From assembly GCA_903789415.1 (NCBI GenBank), contig CAIFEG010000021.1:1-38136 (forward strand): DNA of 38,136 nt. Reading direction: 5' to 3'. The position numbers and the translations under genes are program-made. Source of the DNA: an uncultured Eggerthellaceae bacterium (GTDB lineage: Bacteria > Actinomycetota > Coriobacteriia > Coriobacteriales > Eggerthellaceae). The notes under the pieces are model-generated. The model saw only the letters and a list, made by a program, of their open reading frames with translations, ran no database searches and had not been told where the DNA came from. Below, piece after piece: positions 11,164 to 27,089 of this stretch (position 1 is the stretch's first letter; every line of letters starts with the position of its first letter).

Positions 11164-11781
11164 TTGGCGAAATTTACCAAAATAGCTATAGAGAAAACAT
11201 TTATTGATCTTTTAAACGAACGTCCGCTCGACCAAATTACCGTAACCGACATCGTGAATCGTTGCGGAGTTAATCGCAACACGTTTTATTACTATTTTGA
11301 AGATGTATATGCGCTGATCGACGAGATCTTTCGCGAACAAACAAACGAACTCTTGGACAACTACCCTGTTGAATCAGTCAACAGCTTAAAAAGTGGATTT
11401 GAGGTTGCCACGAAGTTCATGCGCGAGAACAAGACGGCAATTTTCCATTTGTACAATTCGCTCAACCGTGGCCGCTTAGAAGAATATGTCTACGATATTG
11501 CCGAGAAAACGGTTGATCGTTTCATCCATGCACAGGCCGAAGGAATGAACGTTTCCGAGCATGACCTCAACGTTCTCACGCGTCTGTATACCTCGGCATT
11601 TGAAGGAGTGGCACTTCGCTGGATGAGTGAGGGAATGTCTGTTGATCCCATCGAATACATCAACGATATCGATCGCTTAATCCACGGAGTTACGAAATCA
11701 ATCCTGAAAAATGCTTCCAAGGACGCGGCCGATACCTCAAGCTCCGATTCATCTCGTCCTCAGAATTCGAAGAAGAATTAA
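11164..11781 (+). CDS. TetR/AcrR-family transcriptional regulator
   Basis: A 205-residue regulator. The N-terminal helix-turn-helix (residues about 10-47) reads ITVTDIVNRCGVNRNTFYYYF, the TetR signature; the rest is an all-helical ligand or dimer domain, ending in a polar Ser/Asp/Lys tail. The start is taken as TTG 11164-11166, placed 7 bases after AGGAG; an upstream in-frame ATG at 11050 would add 38 residues before the usual TetR N-terminus and has no ribosome site. It precedes the metK-like/MMPL/YhgE operon on the same strand, with a palindromic operator candidate in between, so it probably represses that operon. The inducer is unknown. Confidence 0.9.
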   Translation: MAKFTKIAIEKTFIDLLNERPLDQITVTDIVNRCGVNRNTFYYYFEDVYALIDEIFREQTNELLDNYPVESVNSLKSGFEVATKFMRENKTAIFHLYNSLNRGRLEEYVYDIAEKTVDRFIHAQAEGMNVSEHDLNVLTRLYTSAFEGVALRWMSEGMSVDPIEYINDIDRLIHGVTKSILKNASKDAADTSSSDSSRPQNSKKN

Positions 11782-11788
11782 CGCACGC

Positions 11789-11815
11789 GCACGCGCATTT
11801 GCGCGGTTCGCGTGC
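11789..11815 (+). terminator. possible weak terminator after tetR
   Basis: GCACGCG (11789-11795) pairs with CGCGTGC (11809-11815) across a 13-base loop and is followed by only a short ATTTG. It ends 34 bases after the tetR stop. The weak T-tract makes this uncertain. Confidence 0.35.
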
Positions 11816-11942
11816 ATTTGTGCGACGAGCCCAGGTCCGAGCGATTAATGTATCTTCGTGCGATTAAAATGCTCCCGTGTAGCACTGACAAATCACCTGA
11901 TCATTTGCGTATTCATCGCACCAAACCATTCAAATCCGCGTA

Positions 11943-11981
11943 ATTGTCTAATTTTCAGACAATTTAATTTGATTGTCTGAA
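11943..11981 (+). promoter_or_regulatory. candidate TetR operator upstream of metK-like operon
   Basis: TTCAGACAAT (11954-11963) and ATTGTCTGAA (11972-11981) form a perfect 10-base inverted repeat separated by 8 bases. A third half-site ATTGTCT at 11943-11949 makes another inverted pair with AGACAAT (11957-11963). The 28-base symmetric element is the right size for a TetR-family dimer or pair of dimers. It lies 91 bases before the metK-like start and about 160 after tetR. Binding by the adjacent regulator is inferred. Confidence 0.65.
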
Positions 11982-12072
11982 TTTCGAACGCATCCACATT
12001 TATTGACCGTAGCCTGCATAAATCTTTTGATTCATAGTTTTTTATGTACTATCAATCGACGATTGCGGATTT

Positions 12073-13272
12073 ATGGAACCAAGCACGTATTTTACAAGCG
12101 AAGCAGTATGCACCGGTCATCCGGATAAGGTGTGCGATCAAATTGCCGACGCGCTCCTAGACCATACGCTTGCCCAAGACCCCTCTGCACTTGCCGATTA
12201 CGACGTGGCAATATGCCCCGGTCACGTGCTTGTTATGGGAAAATCATCGGTCAGAATCAAAGACATCGAAGGCATCGTACGTGCCGAGCTTACGCGTATT
12301 GGTTATACTCGCGAAAATTCGGGGGTCGACCCTGCAACATGCACCATCGATGTACACCTGCGCAAACCTTCTTTTGATGTGTCCCGAACGGTCATGCGCA
12401 GCAACAGGGCCGACGCGGGAAGCAGCGACGGTGGCATGTGCATCGGATATGCCTGCGATGAAACATCCACCTATATGCCCGCGCCGATTGAACGAGCCCG
12501 TCAGATGGCAAAAAAGCTTGAGGCGCTTCATCACGATCATAAAGAACAAATCTTTCCTGATGGAAAAGCCCAGGTGTGCTACGAGTACGAAGACGGCGTA
12601 CCAAAACGGGTGCAGTCCGTGATTCTGTGTGTTCAGCACTCCCCTGAAATGAGCACCGATCTGCTCCGTGACAAGTTGGAACAAGACATTGTTCGCTCGA
12701 CAATCCCCGCATCTCAGATGGATGACGATACCCAGATCTACATCAACCCAACCGGCTTTTTTATGACCGGCGGCCCCAACGTAAAAGCGGGATGCACGGG
12801 AAGAAAAACCGGAGCCGATTTCTATGGGTCTGCCACCCACCACATCGGAAGTTCGGTAGCGGGCAAAGATCCAAGCAAAACAACTCGTTCGGGTGCGTAT
12901 ATGGCGCGCTACATCGCCAAAAACATTGTGGCGGCTGGCATCGCACATGCCTGCGAGGTGCGCCTGACCTATGCAATCGGTCTTACCGACCCGGTATGTG
13001 TCGCGATTGACCTGGATAGACCGATTCACCAGAAACCAAAACTGCTCAAATCATCTAAAAAATCCGAAGGACTCGTCCATCAATTAAAAAAGTGGATCGA
13101 TTCCAACTTAGATTTGCGACCGGAGAAAATCATCGAAAAGTTTGATCTGCGTCGCCCGATATATCATTCGCTTTCGTGTTTTGGAAATGTGGGGTTATAT
13201 GCGAAACAAATGTCGTGGGAGAAAACAGATATCGCCCAGAAGATCGCAAATGATCTGGGATTTCAGAAATAG
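12073..13272 (+). CDS. divergent S-adenosylmethionine synthetase-like protein
   Basis: A full-length 399-residue member of the MetK family, which makes S-adenosylmethionine from methionine and ATP. Conserved blocks include FTSEAVCTGHPDK (His15, Asp17 region), MPAPI, PDGKAQV, INPTG, TGRK, AGKDPSK and ARYIAKNIVAAG. By manual comparison with E. coli MetK, several residues invariant in active enzymes are changed: the Glu of GGEI is Lys (LVMGK), the methionine-site Asp of GPMGDCG is Lys (GPNVKAG), the metal-ligand Asp of KVDRS is Thr (KTTRS), and the QSPDINQGVD loop is replaced. It may be a neofunctionalised paralogue and not the housekeeping enzyme. It is first in an operon with an MMPL transporter. 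Confidence 0.85.
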   Translation: MEPSTYFTSEAVCTGHPDKVCDQIADALLDHTLAQDPSALADYDVAICPGHVLVMGKSSVRIKDIEGIVRAELTRIGYTRENSGVDPATCTIDVHLRKPSFDVSRTVMRSNRADAGSSDGGMCIGYACDETSTYMPAPIERARQMAKKLEALHHDHKEQIFPDGKAQVCYEYEDGVPKRVQSVILCVQHSPEMSTDLLRDKLEQDIVRSTIPASQMDDDTQIYINPTGFFMTGGPNVKAGCTGRKTGADFYGSATHHIGSSVAGKDPSKTTRSGAYMARYIAKNIVAAGIAHACEVRLTYAIGLTDPVCVAIDLDRPIHQKPKLLKSSKKSEGLVHQLKKWIDSNLDLRPEKIIEKFDLRRPIYHSLSCFGNVGLYAKQMSWEKTDIAQKIANDLGFQK

Positions 13273-18295: not shown

Positions 18296-19279
18296 TCATT
18301 CCTGCGACGGATGCCGCGGCAAACTCTCTTCTTCCTCTTCTTCTTTTATGGCTATCTGCTCTTCGCGGGCATCGTTGAGCGTCACGATAACGACCATGCT
18401 GATCATCAACGCAAATCCGATGAGATCTGCCACACCGAGCGCACTTCCTAACAACCACCAAGAGAATATCGTTGCCGAAACCGGCTCAGAGAGCCCCAGA
18501 AGATTCGCCCGCACTCCCCCAACATCTTTCACACCTTGTAAGAACAGCGTGAATGCGACAAACGTTCCTAAGAAGACCACGGCAATGGTTGCCCAGATAG
18601 AAAGCGCGTCCCATTGTATTCCGTAGTCGCGCCATGGCTGTGCAAGCGGGAACGAGTAAATGCCGCCCATTAAAAGAGTGATCGACATGACCGGAATGCT
18701 GCCCCACTTCGCAAGAAGTTTTTTGGGGTATCCGGAAAAGAACGCCTGGCCGCATGCATTGACCATGCCCCACGCAAGACCAGCCACACTCATTTCAAGC
18801 GTAAAGGATCCTTTTGTCGCGATTAAAAATACACCGGCAAGTGCCAACACCGTTGCGATAACGTCCATCTTCTCGGGCAGTTTCCGCTCAATAATACAGG
18901 TAGCCACGATCAAAATGACGATGCCAAAGCTCTGCAGCACGGTCGCGATACCGGCCCCGTTGTACTGAATAGAAGAAATATAGGGAAGCTGAATGGCGAA
19001 TGCGCCGAACACCGACAAGATGAGAATCTCGAGCAGCGTATGAGGGCTGCGAATCATCTTTTTCATTCTGTCGGGCTCAAGGATGAACGCCAAGACCGTA
19101 AGCGCAAGACCAGCGAACAGCATACGCATCCAGGTAAGCAGGATAGGCGGAACCCCATAGGTTTCAGTTAAAAGCTGGCAGCACATGCCGGAAAAACCCC
19201 AGCATGTTCCACCAACTAACACGCATATTGTGCCACGCGCCGTATGACTATGGCGAGAAGTCGTATGTTGCTTGGTCAA
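18296..19279 (-). CDS. EamA (DMT superfamily) transporter, copy 1
   Basis: A 327-residue integral membrane protein with about ten hydrophobic segments arranged as two EamA repeats; GGTCWGFSGMCCQLL at the start of repeat 1 and GLSEPVSATIFSW in repeat 2 are diagnostic. The family exports metabolites such as amino acids; the substrate is unknown. The start is TTG 19277-19279, with GGGGGA about 8 bases upstream and a perfect TATAAT (19302-19297) about 18 bases upstream of the start, giving a very short leader. It ends in a poly-Glu stretch. It is clearly paralogous to the next gene on the same strand. Confidence 0.92.
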   Translation of the reverse strand: MTKQHTTSRHSHTARGTICVLVGGTCWGFSGMCCQLLTETYGVPPILLTWMRMLFAGLALTVLAFILEPDRMKKMIRSPHTLLEILILSVFGAFAIQLPYISSIQYNGAGIATVLQSFGIVILIVATCIIERKLPEKMDVIATVLALAGVFLIATKGSFTLEMSVAGLAWGMVNACGQAFFSGYPKKLLAKWGSIPVMSITLLMGGIYSFPLAQPWRDYGIQWDALSIWATIAVVFLGTFVAFTLFLQGVKDVGGVRANLLGLSEPVSATIFSWWLLGSALGVADLIGFALMISMVVIVTLNDAREEQIAIKEEEEEESLPRHPSQE

Positions 19280-19346
19280 ACCGTAATCCCCCGAAAATTA
19301 TATGGAGCAAATCGAAGGAACAGCCATGGGACGTTCCGTGATCACG

Positions 19347-20402
19347 CTAGGCGATCTTGCGATCGGAAACCCGATCAGGAACCTTGTGATCAACAATCTT
19401 TCTATCGGTATGCTCTTGTATACGTGCGCCGCTCAGTTGGTTCGTTTTGGAGGGGTGACCAACGCGGTGTACGCGAATATGTTTTGTTTCTTTAGGCTTT
19501 ACTAGTGTAACAATAATCACCATGCTAATCATCAACGCAAAGCCAACTATATCGATGGGAGCAAGCGCCGATCCTAACAGTGCCCAGGAGAAAATCGATG
19601 CGCTCACTGGCTCAGAAAGTCCCACGAGTGTCGCACGAACTGATCCGATGCGTTTGACGCCTTCTAAGAATAAGAAGAATGCGGCCAGCGTGCCTAAAAG
19701 CACCATGGAAGCCATGGCACCAATAGCGATGGGATCCCAGTTCACGTGCATATTCCAAGGCTGAGCCAGAGGAATGCCGTATATTCCGCCCATAAACATT
19801 GCGATGCCTAGCACCGGCATTACTCCATATTCACGAAGCATGCGAATTGGATATTGCGCATAAAATGCGCTTGTGGTCGCATCGACAAGGCCCCAGAGCA
19901 ACCCAAGCACCGGAATCGCTAAGGCGCCAAAGTTTCCGTGCGTGGCAATCAAAAACACACTTGTGATGCCCATGATGGTTGCAATGATTTCAACGTTTGA
20001 TGGAGCCTTTTTATAGTGTACACATGCCCACACAATCAGAATGACAACCTGAAAGCTCTGAATGACGGTGGCCATACCCGCACTGGTGTACATCGTGGCC
20101 AGTGCATATGAAGTCTGCACGAGAAATAAACCAAAAACTGAAAACAGAAGCAAGCTAAAAAATGTTTTCTTGTTTTTTAGCATCGCAACAATTTTTTCGC
20201 GTTGAGCAAGCAGCAGATACGCCATCGCAAGAAGTCCCGTACACGACATTCGCACCCAGGTGATAAATGTTGCTGGGACATCATAGGTGGTCGTGAGCAG
20301 CTGCGCACACGTACCAGAAAAGCCCCAGAGAATACCGCCTACAAGCGTACAAAGAACGCCAACGAGCAATTGGCTATGAGCAACTGCAGTTTTTTGAGAC
20401 AT
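19347..20402 (-). CDS. EamA (DMT superfamily) transporter, copy 2
   Basis: A 351-residue membrane protein with two EamA repeats, sharing WGFSG.CCQLL-like, PLAQPW and GLSEPVSA..FSW blocks with its neighbour; the two look like a tandem duplication. The start is ATG 20400-20402, with AAAGGA 6 bases upstream; an earlier in-frame start would add 21 residues without a ribosome site. Compared with copy 1 it has a hydrophilic C-terminal tail of about 45 residues containing repeated His-Asp-Arg-Lys motifs. The substrate is unknown; 67 bases separate it from copy 1. Confidence 0.92.
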   Translation of the reverse strand: MSQKTAVAHSQLLVGVLCTLVGGILWGFSGTCAQLLTTTYDVPATFITWVRMSCTGLLAMAYLLLAQREKIVAMLKNKKTFFSLLLFSVFGLFLVQTSYALATMYTSAGMATVIQSFQVVILIVWACVHYKKAPSNVEIIATIMGITSVFLIATHGNFGALAIPVLGLLWGLVDATTSAFYAQYPIRMLREYGVMPVLGIAMFMGGIYGIPLAQPWNMHVNWDPIAIGAMASMVLLGTLAAFFLFLEGVKRIGSVRATLVGLSEPVSASIFSWALLGSALAPIDIVGFALMISMVIIVTLVKPKETKHIRVHRVGHPSKTNQLSGARIQEHTDRKIVDHKVPDRVSDRKIA

Positions 20403-20838
20403 CTCCGATCCTTTTCTCAACGCGTTTTGCCGAACAAATTTTGCCAACCAAATTTGGTTGTGCAACCCGAAAATCAGTGAAGATTTTCCTCTGGTATCGT
20501 GATGTTCACGCCCTTTTTGAAGTCTGTCAACAGTTAATTGGAAGACTTCACGCGACGGGTAGAACTCCCTTGAAATAAGGGTAAAAATCGCCGAAAAACA
20601 GGCAGAAAATGATCCGAAAAGTCAAACATGCGAGTGCTGAAAAGAGGCGCCGAAGAATCAAGTTAAAGAACAAGGTGGGAACCTTCCGCGGACATAAAAA
20701 TGGCTCCCTTCCGAGAGAAGAGAGCCACATACAATCAGTTTCTGATCGAGCGCCGTAGGTATCAATCTCGTTTTGTCAACGCCAACCACGATGGTGCGGC
20801 AAGCACAGGCTGTCAGCACCGCACCCGCCAAACAAAGA
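20403..20838. other. 436-base gene-free region upstream of EamA copy 2
   Basis: No gene is supported. On the minus strand it contains, in order, a hairpin CGATCAG-AAA-CTGATTG, the terminator at 20727-20696, a short AAGGT/ACCTT hairpin, and TTGACA (20530-20525) with a weak GAACAT box 17 bases on, a promoter candidate for the EamA gene. The size leaves room for a small RNA or a long leader, but nothing was recognised. Confidence 0.5.
20696..20727 (-). terminator. intrinsic terminator downstream of yqeY
   Basis: The minus strand reads TGGCTC, one mismatch, CTTC, a 5-base loop, GAAG and GAGCCA (20727-20701), followed by TTTTT (20700-20696). It lies about 110 bases beyond the yqeY stop and 294 bases before EamA copy 2, so it most simply ends the yqeY transcript. 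Confidence 0.7.
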
Positions 20839-21310: not shown

Positions 21311-22156
21311 TTAAAGATTTCCCAAAAACACATTGTGCAAATGCTTCTGAGCGCGTTTTGCACATTCGCGTACTTCATCATCAGGAACAGGCTTGACCTT
21401 TTTCATCTGATACGCTGGATGATACTGCGTGACGTGATATGGCAGATCAGGATCAAGCATCGCCAGCCAGTTCGCGCCCGCCTCAAGCTCGTTTGGATCC
21501 GTCATTCCGGGAACGACCAGCGTGGTAACTTCAACGTGGCAGGTCGGACAATCAATTGCATTCTGAATGGTCATCTCGACCTCTTCGAGGTCACCATAAC
21601 CACATGCAGAATAAAAGCGCGGAGTAAAGCCCTTCAAATCGATATTCACCGCATCAAGGTACGGAAGAATCTCATTGAATGGTCCCTCTTCGATCATGCC
21701 ATTAGTTACGACAACATTCTTGAGTCCCGCTTCATGTGCAAGCTTTGCGGTGTCACGAACATATTCGTAGCCAACGAGCGGCTCGTTGTAGGTAAAGGCA
21801 ATACCAATGTTCCCCTCAGGTTTCAGATCAAGTGCCTTTTGAACCAACTGCTCAGGAGTTACTTCCTCATACTTCACGTCATCTTCTGAAGCCTGAGAAA
21901 TCTCGTAATTCTGGCAGAATGGGCACTTCAGGTTGCACCCAAATGTTCCCACCGAAAGAAGCTTCTTGCCGGGATTCCACATCGCAAGCGGCTTCTTTTC
22001 AACCGGGTCTAACGCCATCGCGCAAATTTTGCCATAGTTCAACGGAATGATTTTCCCATCAACATTTTTGCGGGCGCGGCAACGACCAACCTGGCCTTCA
22101 GCGAGCTGACACTTAAAGGGGCAGACCTTACATTTGACCTTTTGGTTGCTGTCCAT
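21311..22156 (-). CDS. amrS: AmmeMemoRadiSam system radical SAM enzyme
   Basis: A 281-residue radical SAM protein. The cluster-binding CxxxCxxC is Cys74, Cys78 and Cys81 in TFGCNLKCPFCQN. An N-terminal Cys group (Cys9, Cys12, Cys16, Cys26) and the TYNEP motif match the AmrS family, which resembles pyruvate-formate-lyase activases. The start at 22154-22156 has AAAGG 7 bases upstream; the longer in-frame reading would run through a terminator hairpin. The partner domains AMMECR1 and MEMO are fused in the next upstream gene. The set is widespread but has no proven substrate. Confidence 0.92.
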   Translation of the reverse strand: MDSNQKVKCKVCPFKCQLAEGQVGRCRARKNVDGKIIPLNYGKICAMALDPVEKKPLAMWNPGKKLLSVGTFGCNLKCPFCQNYEISQASEDDVKYEEVTPEQLVQKALDLKPEGNIGIAFTYNEPLVGYEYVRDTAKLAHEAGLKNVVVTNGMIEEGPFNEILPYLDAVNIDLKGFTPRFYSACGYGDLEEVEMTIQNAIDCPTCHVEVTTLVVPGMTDPNELEAGANWLAMLDPDLPYHVTQYHPAYQMKKVKPVPDDEVRECAKRAQKHLHNVFLGNL

Positions 22157-22199
22157 GTCTATCCTTTCGAAAATATACATCTGGAAAAGCCCAGACACG

Positions 22200-22221
22200 A
22201 AAACGCCCGATTTCTCGGGCG
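22200..22221 (-). terminator. hairpin terminator between AMMECR1 and radical-SAM genes
   Basis: CGCCCGA-GAAA-TCGGGCG (22221-22204 on the minus strand) is a perfect 7-pair stem with a GNRA-type tetraloop, followed by TTTTCG. It lies 154 bases beyond the MEMO-AMMECR1 stop and 44 bases before the amrS start. It may only partly terminate, tuning the ratio of the two proteins. Confidence 0.6.
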
Positions 22222-22375
22222 CATTCATTTGTAACTTTCTCTATTGTACTCGGTTGTGGTCAAACCGGTCTCATTTCGCTCCCAAAACCTTACGGTCTGC
22301 AAATATTGATAAGGAAATGCGATGCTTTTATGGCGAGATCTGCTCGACGTGGATAAATCCGTCCCACCAGCAAAA

Positions 22376-23806
22376 CTAAATCTGCTCGGCATGATCGGGA
22401 TAGTGCCTGACCACGGTAAACTTTTCAAGGTTGCATGATTCGCTTGGCGCGATCCCCGCTTTCTGCTTTGCGATCGCAACCTGCTCAGCCACCGTGTCTA
22501 CCCCATCCAAGTTTGGAAGGAGCACACCACGACGCATGCCTTTCGACACAATCACACCGAAATGTTTCGGATCAAGCTCTGCGGCTTCACACGGCTGTGA
22601 CGGAGAAAGCACGTCCACCGAAAAATCCAGATGTGGAAGTTCTTCTTCGCGAACTGCCGGAAACCGCGGATCTTGGCTGCACGCAGAAATCGCATTGCCG
22701 ATAATTTCTTCGGCGATGTTTTTGCGATATGGCTGAAGCGTTCCAATGCATCCACGCAGCTCGCCGTCCTCATGAATCGAAACAAACGTACCCGCACGCT
22801 TTTCCGTCATTTCCGCAGGAAGCCCATCGGGTACGGGTAGGTGATCACGGTGCTTAACGTAGGCGTCAACCGCAGAAATCGCAAGCGACACATAGGGATC
22901 AGTTACCTTTGGAGCGGCGGCATTTGAACCGTCGCCCGATGCGGTATCCGATGTCTTGTTCGATGCCGCCGACTCGGCTGCAGACTCGCTGCCAGCCGCC
23001 TGATTTCCCGCAACTTCAAACGCCGCAACACCATAGCCCACGCCAAACGGACCTTCATAGCTTAAGAGCCTGCCCGAATACTGCGTGCCATCGAGCGCTC
23101 CTGCCATCATTTCCCAAGATGGGAGTCCACAATATGCCGCATCTTCGCACATCTGTGGATCAAGAGAAAACAGCTTGTGCAAATCACCCGATTTGAAAAT
23201 TTTACATACCGCTGCATCAAATTTTGGACCCGCCGGGTTGAACCCATACGGACCATCCTCGGTGAGCTTATGTGACATGTCACCGCTGGCGATCCACACC
23301 ACACGACGCCCTAGATCGTTTGCGCAGTTCGCGATAACTTGTCCCAGCCTGAAATGATCTTGCGCAGAAAAGCCCGAAAGACCTACTTCAACAAGCTTGT
23401 AGTCGTGATAAAACTTTTCGACAAAATGAAGTGGAATGAGCGCCGCATAATCCATAGGTTTTCCGCGCCATGCCGTAGATGAAACTCTGAACTTCGCATC
23501 ATTCGTAACGTCTAAAATGCGATCTACCAGCTCGGTATCAATATCGGCATCAACGCGCACCTTGCGCGCCCTGAATTGAGCCATGTCACCATGAAGCGTA
23601 GGACCAGGCGCAATCGCAAACGCATCATAATATGCAGGGGCATGAGGCGAGCTCACCACGATAGTATCTGGTTTGAGCTCAGCAACACGACGCGCAACCT
23701 GGATATATGCATCGATGGTGTCCTGAATCCCCTTTTCTTCGCCACGACCCACTTCGTGAATGATCAGTGGTGGATGCGGAACAGCAAATCCAGCAAGAAT
23801 ACTCAT
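22376..23806 (-). CDS. fused MEMO and AMMECR1 protein (AmmeMemoRadiSam A+B)
   Basis: A 476-residue fusion. Residues 1-266 are a MEMO/class III extradiol dioxygenase-like (LigB) domain with His-containing motifs VPHPP, SSPHAP and SGDMSH. Residues about 267-300 are an Ala/Ser/Gly linker. Residues 301-476 are an AMMECR1 domain with its hallmark LRGCIGT at 350-356 and DPRFPAV. The start ATG 23804-23806 follows GAGG at 8 bases; a GTG three codons earlier overlaps that site. Association with the radical-SAM gene downstream is the recognised but unexplained AmmeMemoRadiSam set. A protein-modification or redox role is only speculative. Confidence 0.92.
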   Translation of the reverse strand: MSILAGFAVPHPPLIIHEVGRGEEKGIQDTIDAYIQVARRVAELKPDTIVVSSPHAPAYYDAFAIAPGPTLHGDMAQFRARKVRVDADIDTELVDRILDVTNDAKFRVSSTAWRGKPMDYAALIPLHFVEKFYHDYKLVEVGLSGFSAQDHFRLGQVIANCANDLGRRVVWIASGDMSHKLTEDGPYGFNPAGPKFDAAVCKIFKSGDLHKLFSLDPQMCEDAAYCGLPSWEMMAGALDGTQYSGRLLSYEGPFGVGYGVAAFEVAGNQAAGSESAAESAASNKTSDTASGDGSNAAAPKVTDPYVSLAISAVDAYVKHRDHLPVPDGLPAEMTEKRAGTFVSIHEDGELRGCIGTLQPYRKNIAEEIIGNAISACSQDPRFPAVREEELPHLDFSVDVLSPSQPCEAAELDPKHFGVIVSKGMRRGVLLPNLDGVDTVAEQVAIAKQKAGIAPSESCNLEKFTVVRHYPDHAEQI

Positions 23807-23850
23807 TTGTATCACCTCAAAAGCCAGAGACTTTTTATTGCCAACGTTTT

Positions 23851-24601: not shown

Positions 24602-27001
24602 TTACAACTGGCTGGTTAGATTTTTCTCATGCTCCAGTAAGAGAGTAAACGCGCATATGGTAAAGCTATCATCTATTTCACCTGCAAAAATCGCTTTATG
24701 CAGTTCGGATAAATTGAGTTCTCGAGTACTGATGATGCCCTCATATCCTTCGGAAATATGATATCCATCAATGTCTGCAAGATAGATAGCCACATGATTA
24801 GAAGTCAGCCCACTATCTGAAGTTATAGTCCCCAAATGTTGCAGTGCCTGAGGAGTTGCTTGCAGCTCCTCAAAGAGTTCGCGCGCAGCATTTCCTGAAT
24901 CATCGCAGTCAGGTTCTGCATACCCACGAGGAAATGATAATTGGCGATCTCTAATAGCATGCCGATTTTGATCAATAAGGACATATTTCTCGTGGTAGCG
25001 GGGCACAATAACGACGCCATTACCTGCCGTAGGAATTATTCTTTCGTAAGGGTAATAAGACGACTCGGTATTCGAGCCTGCATCATCTTTTTTATTCTGG
25101 ACTTCGATAGGGTCCACAACCATCCGGTTGTAGTCGCTCTTATATACAATTCCGAATGTGTAACCGTACATTTCTTCTTCCCTAATGAGCTCTTTAATTA
25201 CATTTTGGTCGCTCACATTTGCAAGCGGATACATCGAATTATTTTTGAATAAATCTTCAGACGATTTATTTTCAGCTTTCTTTTTGCTCTCGCATACAAA
25301 TGATTGATAATCCGAAATACTGCGCGGAACAATATAGTTAATGGGACGCTCAGACGAAAGAGGTTCTGCGCTACGCACGTTTTTTGAGTTAGTGACCCCC
25401 TCTACTGAATGAGTAGAAATACGTCCGCCATCAACAAATAGTTGACCAATACTCCCCAACGCCTCAGATAACGCAAGAAATCCCGGTACTCTACGCGAGA
25501 TAATCTGTGTGACAAATTCTGTAATAAACAAAAATAGAATCGTTTCAATAACGCCCGGAAGCACCGATGAAGCGTCTACATAAATATCAAATAGGTCCTG
25601 AACTGCATCAATAGTTAGTTCAATCAGACATGCAATAGCGACGCACAGCATGGCAATACCAAATTTTTTTGTAATATGCGTGAGCATAATATGCTTTAAA
25701 TGATGCTGCTGAAGACTCTGTGCATACTCGTAACGAGGAACAAATGCCTCGTTGGTTTCGTCGGCTAATGCAACGGTATTCTCAGAATCATTTTTAGGTG
25801 AATTGTTTTTCCGCCGATGTTTCTCTTCCGCCTGTACATAGCCGGTTAAACGGACAATATCTGCCAGTCGAGGAATCTTATCAAGTGCTTCAAATTTTTT
25901 AAATGTGTTGGTTTCAGGAGTCAAAAACCGCAAATCAGCATGAACGCCCTGTTGCCAATATCTATCGAGGCGCTGTCTAAAATCAGCCAAAAACGAAGGG
26001 GCGATATTCTCAGGGGCAAGGGCGATATTCTCAGGCGCGATGTTTTGAGGGGCGATATTCTCGTAATTTACGCTCCTACTATAATGATTAGTTGCAGTTT
26101 CTAGCTCGCAAACGTCATAGCGTTTAGAAGTATTGCAAATGCTGATTTCACTTGCGTAGTTGTAACACAAATCAATAATAGCCGCCGCGTATTGGCATGC
26201 ACGGCACAGCTTTGGATTATTCAAAGCTTTATCTCTTATCTTCCCAATCTCACGAAGATACGCTGATCGGTTGTCCTTTTGCTTTGAGTCTTTTTCTTGA
26301 TAGATATCCAAATTGCGAATGATTGAAACTGCATCTGCCCATAAATCGTCATCTTCGAAAGAAGCATTGGTCACAACTTTTAGAATATTCGATAGTTTAA
26401 GGTTTTCGTATTCTCCAAAATCTCGCGGAGAGATATAGATCTGCTGAAGAGCACTAATGCGTAAGATGATGGAAAGAAGCCAGTAGAGATTCGTGGCAAT
26501 AGATCGCATTTCCGCAACACCGATCTCAGCCTTCTTTACATGGCCCTCAATTACCTCCTCAAAAAGTTCTTTAACCTCATCATCGGTGCGTTTTCCGCCC
26601 TCCCGATATTCATTAATTTCAGTAAGGTCAGAGTAGGTAAGGCTGCGACGCATCAAAGCGGTAAGCCGTTTTTGCGAGAACTTAATCGGTATGGCCGAAT
26701 AGATAAATCGTTTATCTTCGGCTATCGAATTGAGCAGATATTGAGAAACCGTACGTGTCTTCCCAAACTGAGAGATCCGAATGCTCCCTTGTTCAAAAAG
26801 TTTCACAAGATTGTTGTAGTATTCTGGATTGCTTATGAGACTGAAAAATCCACGCGAATCGACGAGCTGATTGAATGTGAGCACAACAATATTGCCATTC
26901 TCAACTATTTCGTGATAAAGAGCGCGCTGGCCTTCAATAATATCTGAATCAGTTTTTCGAACTGAATCGAGCTCGAACAAATAAACGTTCTTGCGAGGCA
27001 T
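24602..27001 (-). CDS. membrane protein with C-terminal Nudix domain and unknown N-terminal region
   Basis: A 799-residue protein that I do not recognise as a named family. Residues 1-300 form a mixed, mostly helical soluble region opening with YLFELDSV. Residues 313-335 hold a short NIAPE/NIAPQ repeat. Two hydrophobic helices lie at about 448-464 and 479-502. Residues about 655-790 form a Nudix hydrolase domain with box GYAEPDCDDSGNAARELFEEL (693-713): the catalytic RELFEE is intact, but the first conserved Glu is Cys698 and the later Gly is Gln. The start ATG 26999-27001 has GAGGAG 6 bases upstream. The gene is AT-richer than its neighbours and stands alone, suggesting acquisition. Nucleotide sensing at the membrane is an inference. 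Confidence 0.8.
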   Translation of the reverse strand: MPRKNVYLFELDSVRKTDSDIIEGQRALYHEIVENGNIVVLTFNQLVDSRGFFSLISNPEYYNNLVKLFEQGSIRISQFGKTRTVSQYLLNSIAEDKRFIYSAIPIKFSQKRLTALMRRSLTYSDLTEINEYREGGKRTDDEVKELFEEVIEGHVKKAEIGVAEMRSIATNLYWLLSIILRISALQQIYISPRDFGEYENLKLSNILKVVTNASFEDDDLWADAVSIIRNLDIYQEKDSKQKDNRSAYLREIGKIRDKALNNPKLCRACQYAAAIIDLCYNYASEISICNTSKRYDVCELETATNHYSRSVNYENIAPQNIAPENIALAPENIAPSFLADFRQRLDRYWQQGVHADLRFLTPETNTFKKFEALDKIPRLADIVRLTGYVQAEEKHRRKNNSPKNDSENTVALADETNEAFVPRYEYAQSLQQHHLKHIMLTHITKKFGIAMLCVAIACLIELTIDAVQDLFDIYVDASSVLPGVIETILFLFITEFVTQIISRRVPGFLALSEALGSIGQLFVDGGRISTHSVEGVTNSKNVRSAEPLSSERPINYIVPRSISDYQSFVCESKKKAENKSSEDLFKNNSMYPLANVSDQNVIKELIREEEMYGYTFGIVYKSDYNRMVVDPIEVQNKKDDAGSNTESSYYPYERIIPTAGNGVVIVPRYHEKYVLIDQNRHAIRDRQLSFPRGYAEPDCDDSGNAARELFEELQATPQALQHLGTITSDSGLTSNHVAIYLADIDGYHISEGYEGIISTRELNLSELHKAIFAGEIDDSFTICAFTLLLEHEKNLTSQL
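25998..26063 (-). repeat. in-frame tandem repeat coding NIAPE units
   Basis: Four units of GGGGCGATATTCTCA type (plus-strand reading) follow each other with lengths 15, 21, 15 and 15 bases. All lengths are multiples of three, so unit gain or loss would keep the frame. They encode repeated Glu-Asn-Ile-Ala-Pro in the linker ahead of the membrane helices. Confidence 0.85.
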
Positions 27002-27089
27002 TTCGATCTCCTCTTCTTTTTCAGCTGGGGCAATGCTCCTGAGACAATGCATCTAAGACAATGCACAACAGTATGCAGCTTTTTGAAGC

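What the first reader, a model, noticed from the sequence alone, without database searches (positions are those of the whole stretch)
24602..27001. Novel membrane protein ending in a Nudix domain
An uncharacterised N-terminal region of about 300 residues, two membrane helices in the middle and a C-terminal Nudix domain with an altered box (Cys in place of the first Glu) make an unusual architecture. Two-helix membrane modules joined to nucleotide-binding domains are known from nucleotide-sensing conflict systems. The lone, AT-richer gene between housekeeping blocks fits an acquired defence or stress gene. This role is an inference.
Basis: partly seen in the sequence, partly recalled or inferred. 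Interest (0 to 1): 0.72.

Follow-up and report, generated by a model that had tools for sequence, protein, structure and literature searches.

The report
Horizontally spread membrane-hairpin Nudix protein
An uncharacterised bacterial protein joins a conserved cytoplasmic domain of unknown fold, a two-helix membrane hairpin and an apparently intact ADP-ribose-pyrophosphatase-like enzyme; its gene is scattered across gut Firmicutes and Coriobacteriia by horizontal transfer, but nothing found here ties it to phage defence.

Summary
The gene is real: 24602-27001 (-), 799 aa, with an RBS before the ATG at 27001. It holds an N-terminal region (1 to about 400) without any Pfam, NCBIfam, PADLOC or PDB relative, a two-helix membrane hairpin (about 449-498) and a C-terminal ADPRase-type Nudix unit (about 600-790). 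Some 30 relatives were found in gut Firmicutes and Coriobacteriia. The N-terminal region is their best conserved part. The Nudix part is fused, or is the adjacent gene, in all but two or three. The gene is rare (3 of 48 genera in its family; 6 of 397 Lachnospiraceae genomes). The tree rejects a single Coriobacteriia clade (p-AU 0.0005), so it spreads between phyla.

The 'Cys for Glu' is not meaningful: that position varies across the family, while REUxEE and the substrate arginines are conserved, so a working ADP-ribose/NDP-sugar pyrophosphatase is likely. Defence is not supported: no enrichment of defence neighbours, no phage or viral copies, no SLATT or SLOG match. Instead 7 of 33 loci against 1 of 32 controls lie near nucleotide-sugar genes (p = 0.054, biased).

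Best reading: a membrane-hairpin sensor/effector whose nucleotide ligand is removed by its own Nudix domain, working like the invertebrate TRPM2 channel-enzyme without detectable kinship.

The parts
24602..27001 (-). Whole gene, 799 aa plus stop; RBS GAGGAG at about 27009-27014
   Evidence: single full-length copy in the 1.88 Mb genome
25802..27001 (-). N-terminal region, residues 1 to about 400, fold unknown; motifs VYLFELDSVR (6-15), ALYxEIxxNGNxVVLTxNQLxDSR (27-50), DLCYNYxxExSI (277-288)
   Evidence: 19 invariant columns in 25 sequences; no match in Pfam, NCBIfam, PADLOC, PHROGs or PDB above chance
25508..25657 (-). Two-helix membrane hairpin, residues 449-498 (449-467 and 480-498), short acidic outer loop, both long domains predicted cytoplasmic
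   Evidence: hydropathy in 25 of 25 sequences; family sum K+R/D+E 148/41 before helix 1, 25/60 in the loop
24630..25204 (-). ADPRase-type Nudix unit, residues about 600-791, including the base-recognising strand module (GxxYxSxYNxxxVDPI...YERI) ahead of the Nudix fold
   Evidence: profile match to PDB 5c7q, E 1.4e-14, over chain residues 14-172; NudE NCBIfam hit
24866..24925 (-). Nudix box GYAEPDCDDSGNAARELFEE, residues 693-712; REUxEE intact, position 7 = Cys699
25997..26062 (-). Short in-frame 15-bp repeat coding (E/Q)NIAP, an insertion seen only in this member

Best explanation
A stand-alone, horizontally spread membrane protein with both large domains in the cytoplasm. SHOWN by sequence: a deeply conserved N-terminal region of new sequence type, a 2TM hairpin, and an ADP-ribose-pyrophosphatase-type Nudix unit that keeps the metal-binding REUxEE core and the two substrate arginines and is fused to, or encoded next to, the N-region/hairpin in nearly every genome. 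INFERRED: the N-region senses or makes a nucleoside-diphosphate ligand (ADP-ribose or an NDP-sugar) and drives the oligomerised hairpin, which alters membrane permeability; the Nudix domain hydrolyses that ligand and so ends or limits the signal. It would therefore work like the invertebrate TRPM2 channel-enzyme (N-terminal nucleotide-binding domain, pore, C-terminal active ADPRase) without being one.
For: Region order and conservation. Nudix fused in about 20 relatives, and adjacent or slightly overlapping as its own gene in 8 further ones, in either order: upstream in L058, downstream in L060, L064, L098, L099, L101, L102 and G356/L032. This is strong evidence of a shared function. N-in/C-in topology by positive-inside counts, 148/41 against 25/60. 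REUxEE, Arg680 and Arg654 conserved, and an invariant Glu754 within one residue of the catalytic Glu140 of Bd-NDPSase (PMC4629899). Autonomous gene with no other fixed neighbour and one copy per genome (two adjacent fragments in G764). Spread across phyla. Precedent: sea-anemone and choanoflagellate TRPM2 hydrolyse their own activating ligand (PMC6461439).
Against: No fold, ligand, pore or activity has been tested. No sequence relation to TRPM/SLOG (LSDAT): no G000 match; hhalign probability 0.06 % to a single LSDAT member, a weak test. Two members (L061, L063) have no Nudix of this type in the genome beyond generic ones. Hydropathy cannot tell a pore from an anchor. The neighbourhood hint points to NDP-sugar genes rather than to a signal.
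Confidence: 0.35

Rival explanations
1. A membrane-tethered NDP-sugar or ADP-ribose pyrophosphatase tied to cell-surface polysaccharide metabolism: the hairpin only anchors it, the N-region contacts a sugar-nucleotide enzyme or carries a second activity, and the Nudix domain trims NDP-sugars at the membrane.
For: Closest solved relative is an NDP-sugar hydrolase preferring GDP-mannose over ADP-ribose (5c7q). Within 6 kb, 7 of 33 loci against 1 of 32 control regions carry dTDP-glucose dehydratase, GDP-mannose or UDP-galactopyranose genes (Fisher p = 0.054). rfbB-type genes sit about 200-320 bp away in L040, L065 and L098.
Against: The Asp-X-Lys mark of NDP-sugar hydrolases is Asp-Gly-Phe/Tyr here, and many members have the ADPRase-type Pro at box +15. 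Most loci have no such neighbour. Reference proteins were picked from near loci, and polysaccharide loci are themselves variable hot spots.
Confidence: 0.3
2. A single-gene anti-phage defence protein of the nucleotide-sensing kind: infection changes an NAD-derived nucleotide, the hairpin kills or stalls the cell, and the Nudix domain guards against false alarm.
For: Patchy, phylum-crossing and AT-rich. SLOG-2TM proteins of such systems have a similar plan (L137; identified by Pfam LSDAT_prok). One relative sits 74 bp from a TIR-like gene (L063).
Against: No enrichment of PADLOC families near the gene (against control 74). None in phage or viral collections. No SLATT or SLOG match.
Confidence: 0.15
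3. Effector plus built-in antidote: the N-region/hairpin is toxic on its own, and the Nudix part neutralises it by destroying its ligand or by binding it.
For: Nudix encoded as its own adjacent or overlapping gene in 8 relatives, in both orders. The N-region/hairpin is the better conserved core. Damaged copies occur (G016, L041, L060, L100).
Against: Fusion in most members is unlike usual toxin-antitoxin pairs. L061 and L063 live without this Nudix.
Confidence: 0.12
4. The Nudix domain is a dead, ligand-binding sensor, as the reader's 'altered box' would suggest.
For: Position 7 of the box is not Glu in 16 of 19 members.
Against: REUxEE and the arginines are kept. Deviating boxes are common among structurally characterised Nudix proteins, some of them active hydrolases (PMC5389931).
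Confidence: 0.08

Closest known systems
Bd3179 NDP-sugar hydrolase / bacterial ADPRases (NudF, NudE; PDB 5c7q, 8wv3, 1vhg)
   Same: The whole C-terminal unit, including the N-terminal base-recognition strands and the Nudix core
   Different: Those are small soluble enzymes; here the unit hangs on a membrane hairpin and a new N-region, and the first Glu of the box is not conserved
Invertebrate TRPM2 channel-enzyme (ADP-ribose-gated channel with active NUDT9H)
   Same: Order: N-terminal domain, membrane part, C-terminal ADPRase-like Nudix with intact REUxEE (PMC6461439)
   Different: 2TM not 6TM; no SLOG/LSDAT match of the N-region; no channel activity known; different domain of life
SLOG/LSDAT-SLATT (2TM) proteins of nucleotide-centric conflict systems
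   Same: N-terminal cytoplasmic domain followed by a 2TM hairpin (L137)
   Different: No SLATT or SLOG family among the families listed for 25 members up to E 1; no conflict-system partner genes
Stand-alone Nudix relatives of Streptomyces/Embleya (e.g. NZ_CP108778, G322)
   Same: Nudix unit plus the segment just before it
   Different: No N-region or hairpin seen nearby; other neighbours, including CHAT proteins

Membership tests
Nudix ADP-ribose/NDP-sugar pyrophosphatases | Nudix fold with ADPRase-type N-terminal strand module | tested here: met
   profile match to 5c7q over chain residues 14-172, E 1.4e-14
Nudix ADP-ribose/NDP-sugar pyrophosphatases | Catalytic core REUxEE | tested here: met
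   E708, E711, E712 conserved in 19-21 of 21
Nudix ADP-ribose/NDP-sugar pyrophosphatases | Full box GX5EX7REUXEEXGU | tested here: not met
   position 7 is Glu in 3 of 19, Cys in the window; not required in all characterised Nudix proteins (PMC5389931)
NDP-sugar hydrolases (NDPSase) | Asp-X-Lys on the last helix | tested here: not met
   Asp-Gly-Phe/Tyr (Asp-Ser-Phe in the window)
ADPRases | Pro 15 residues after the last Gly of the box | tested here: inconclusive
   Pro in many relatives (xxPDSGLT), Ser in the window
SLATT 2TM effectors | match to a SLATT profile | tested here: not met
   none of the 25 Pfam families listed for 25 members at E up to 1 is a SLATT family; none for the window protein at E up to 10
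SLOG/LSDAT (TRPM N-terminal domain) | match to LSDAT profile | tested here: not met
   no match in G000; hhalign 0.06 % to a single member
TRPM2-like channel-enzyme | ion conduction gated by ADP-ribose | not testable with these tools
   needs electrophysiology
Anti-phage defence system | recurrent association with defence genes or mobile carriers | tested here: not met
Anti-phage defence system | protection against phage | not testable with these tools
   needs plaque assays

The most novel reading that the evidence does not exclude
A prokaryotic ligand-gated membrane channel-enzyme: a new nucleotide-sensing domain opens a 2TM pore and a fused ADPRase removes the ligand, a convergent counterpart of TRPM2 that spreads horizontally through the gut microbiota.
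Probability: 0.15. Interest if true: 0.85.

Novelty: new variant of a known kind. Interest (0 to 1): 0.5.

Why it matters
It defines an unnamed family in gut bacteria (including Coprococcus comes, Mitsuokella multacida and Parvibacter caecicola) with a conserved region that no library used here knows, tied to a likely NAD/NDP-sugar-metabolising enzyme at the membrane. If the hairpin is gated by the Nudix substrate, it would be a compact bacterial example of self-limiting nucleotide signalling at a membrane.

Tried and rejected
The first genome-contig scan, with the protein alone, found nothing; a second with an N-region alignment gave 26 loci. N-region against PDB: only a chance hit to a designed helical protein. 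PHROGs and PADLOC hits of single members are chance level. ThiN, LPD14 and 'Specificity_I' hits to the window protein were rejected because no relative repeats them. A gene next to the Streptomyces Nudix (L033) looked similar by eye but fails hhalign (0.1 %). LSDAT comparison negative. The stlA salt-tolerance paper (PMC3861447) concerns an unrelated protein. Literature searches found no description of this architecture; the library is open-access only. The exact empty site was not shown: rsmB-fbp is kept in most relatives examined, but what follows fbp differs.

Full report
WHAT IS THERE. The minus-strand ORF 27001-24602 codes for 799 aa, with GAGGAG 8 nt before the ATG. It is the only full-length copy in the 1.88 Mb genome. 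Pfam sees only a weak NUDIX match at residues 663-728 (E 8.8e-4, below cut-off), and NCBIfam sees NudE at 651-790 (E 6e-10, below cut-off). PADLOC gives only chance-level hits. GC is 0.419 and GC3 0.390, the lowest of the long genes in the window.

RELATIVES. Searches of the family, order and phylum and of one genome per species gave full-length relatives in Coriobacteriia (G046, G143, Parvibacter caecicola G016, Tractidigestivibacter G645) and in gut Firmicutes (Coprococcus comes, Mitsuokella multacida, Clostridium paridis, Erysipelotrichaceae, Oscillospiraceae and others). A more distant two-gene form is in G356. Lachnospiraceae added five more. The scan works through short peptide patterns, so the list is not complete. 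Occurrence is thin: 3 of 48 genera of the window's family including the window's own, 6 of 123 genera of the order, 6 of 397 Lachnospiraceae genomes.

ANATOMY. The alignment of 25 sequences shows 19 invariant residues, all in the N-terminal region (E10, D12, S13, E31, Q45, D48, Q87, Y88, R245, S246, E285 and others); the count leans that way because five aligned members lack the Nudix part. The pattern V-Y-L-F-E-L-D-S ... A-L-Y-x-E-I-x-x-N-G-N-x-V-V-L-T ... suggests alternating strands and helices; this is inference only. Then follow two hydrophobic helices in every member, with a positively charged inner flank (148 K+R against 41 D+E over the family) and an acidic loop (25 against 60), so both large parts should face the cytoplasm. 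Hairpin glutamates recur (ET..FL...E in helix 2).

THE NUDIX UNIT. A profile of the family matches bacterial ADPRases and NDP-sugar hydrolases in the PDB (5c7q E 1.4e-14), including the N-terminal strand module that binds the base. Glu708, Glu711 and Glu712 (REUxEE), Arg680 (beta-phosphate), Arg654 (base stacking) and Glu754 (loop; within one residue of the catalytic Glu140 of Bd3179) are conserved (roles from PMC4629899). That Glu is thought to stabilise the loop, and deviating boxes are common among structurally characterised Nudix proteins (PMC5389931). The unit is therefore probably active. Specificity is open: the Asp-X-Lys mark of NDP-sugar hydrolases is missing, and the ADPRase Pro is present in many members but not in the window.

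COUPLING. Where the Nudix part is not fused, it is the next gene, often overlapping by a few bases: upstream in L058, downstream in L060, L064, L098, L099, L101, L102 and G356. L061 and L063 have none beyond generic ADPRases elsewhere in the genome, and in L100 the gene is damaged and no Nudix was found. No other neighbour recurs. The Nudix enzyme and the N-region/hairpin thus form one functional unit.

HISTORY. The five Coriobacteriia sequences need five changes on the tree, and a single clade is rejected (p-AU 0.0005), though three of them (window, L065, L052) could be one group (p 0.35) and some branches are long. The nearest relative of the window protein is from Firmicutes (53 %). In relatives with rsmB-fbp, the gene after fbp differs. 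Acquisition is well supported; the donor is unknown.

CONTEXT TESTS. PADLOC matches among 99 neighbours are not richer than among 102 control genes of the same genomes. No match in 50,697 phage records with the window protein or in IMG/VR with the N-region alignment. Plasmid matches cover only the Nudix part. Genes for nucleotide sugars are near 7 of 33 loci against 1 of 32 controls (p = 0.054). The reference proteins came from the near loci (self-hits removed) and polysaccharide loci are variable by nature, so this is a hint only.

MECHANISM. Shown: architecture, topology by charge rule, conservation, coupling, spread. Inferred: ligand (ADP-ribose or NDP-sugar), sensing by the N-region, action of the hairpin on the membrane, and termination by the Nudix domain. 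The nearest working analogue is invertebrate TRPM2, whose C-terminal Nudix hydrolyses the ligand that opens the channel (PMC6461439). There is no sign of kinship: LSDAT profile and hhalign are negative, as is SLATT. Rivals are a tethered NDP-sugar pyrophosphatase, a defence protein, and an effector with a built-in antidote.

LIMITS. Structure prediction was off, so the fold of residues 1-400, the main unknown, could not be attacked. The negative hhalign to LSDAT used a single sequence. Neighbour lists rest on raw ORFs, and the Pfam/PADLOC neighbour tables show only the 25 most matched families. The discussion of function rests on no experiment.

Noticed in passing
L029:6993-9461 (-), Parvibacter caecicola DSM 22242: The relative carries a single in-frame TGA after residue 219: a nonsense mutation or sequence error.
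   Followed up: partly
L041:9998-12345 (+), Coprococcus comes MSK.16.63: The hairpin part and the Nudix part lie in different frames overlapping by 55 bases, as if a fused gene had a frameshift.
   Followed up: partly
L063:6381-7613 (+): A TIR-like gene (by eye) lies 74 bp before an N-region/hairpin gene that has no Nudix.
   Followed up: no
L058:8310-9230 and 11672-12592 (+): Two copies of one nucleotidyltransferase gene, near identical at their starts, flank the Nudix/hairpin gene pair, which may mark an insertion by duplication.
   Followed up: no
window 25997-26062: In-frame 15-bp tandem repeat, about 4 copies, coding (E/Q)NIAP, seen only in the window protein.
   Followed up: partly
window 21311-23815: A radical-SAM ORF and a long ORF that looks like a Memo/AMMECR1 fusion (AmmeMemoRadiSam type, by eye) lie side by side.
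   Followed up: no
window 18296-20465: Two similar EamA-like transporter ORFs in tandem (by eye).
   Followed up: no
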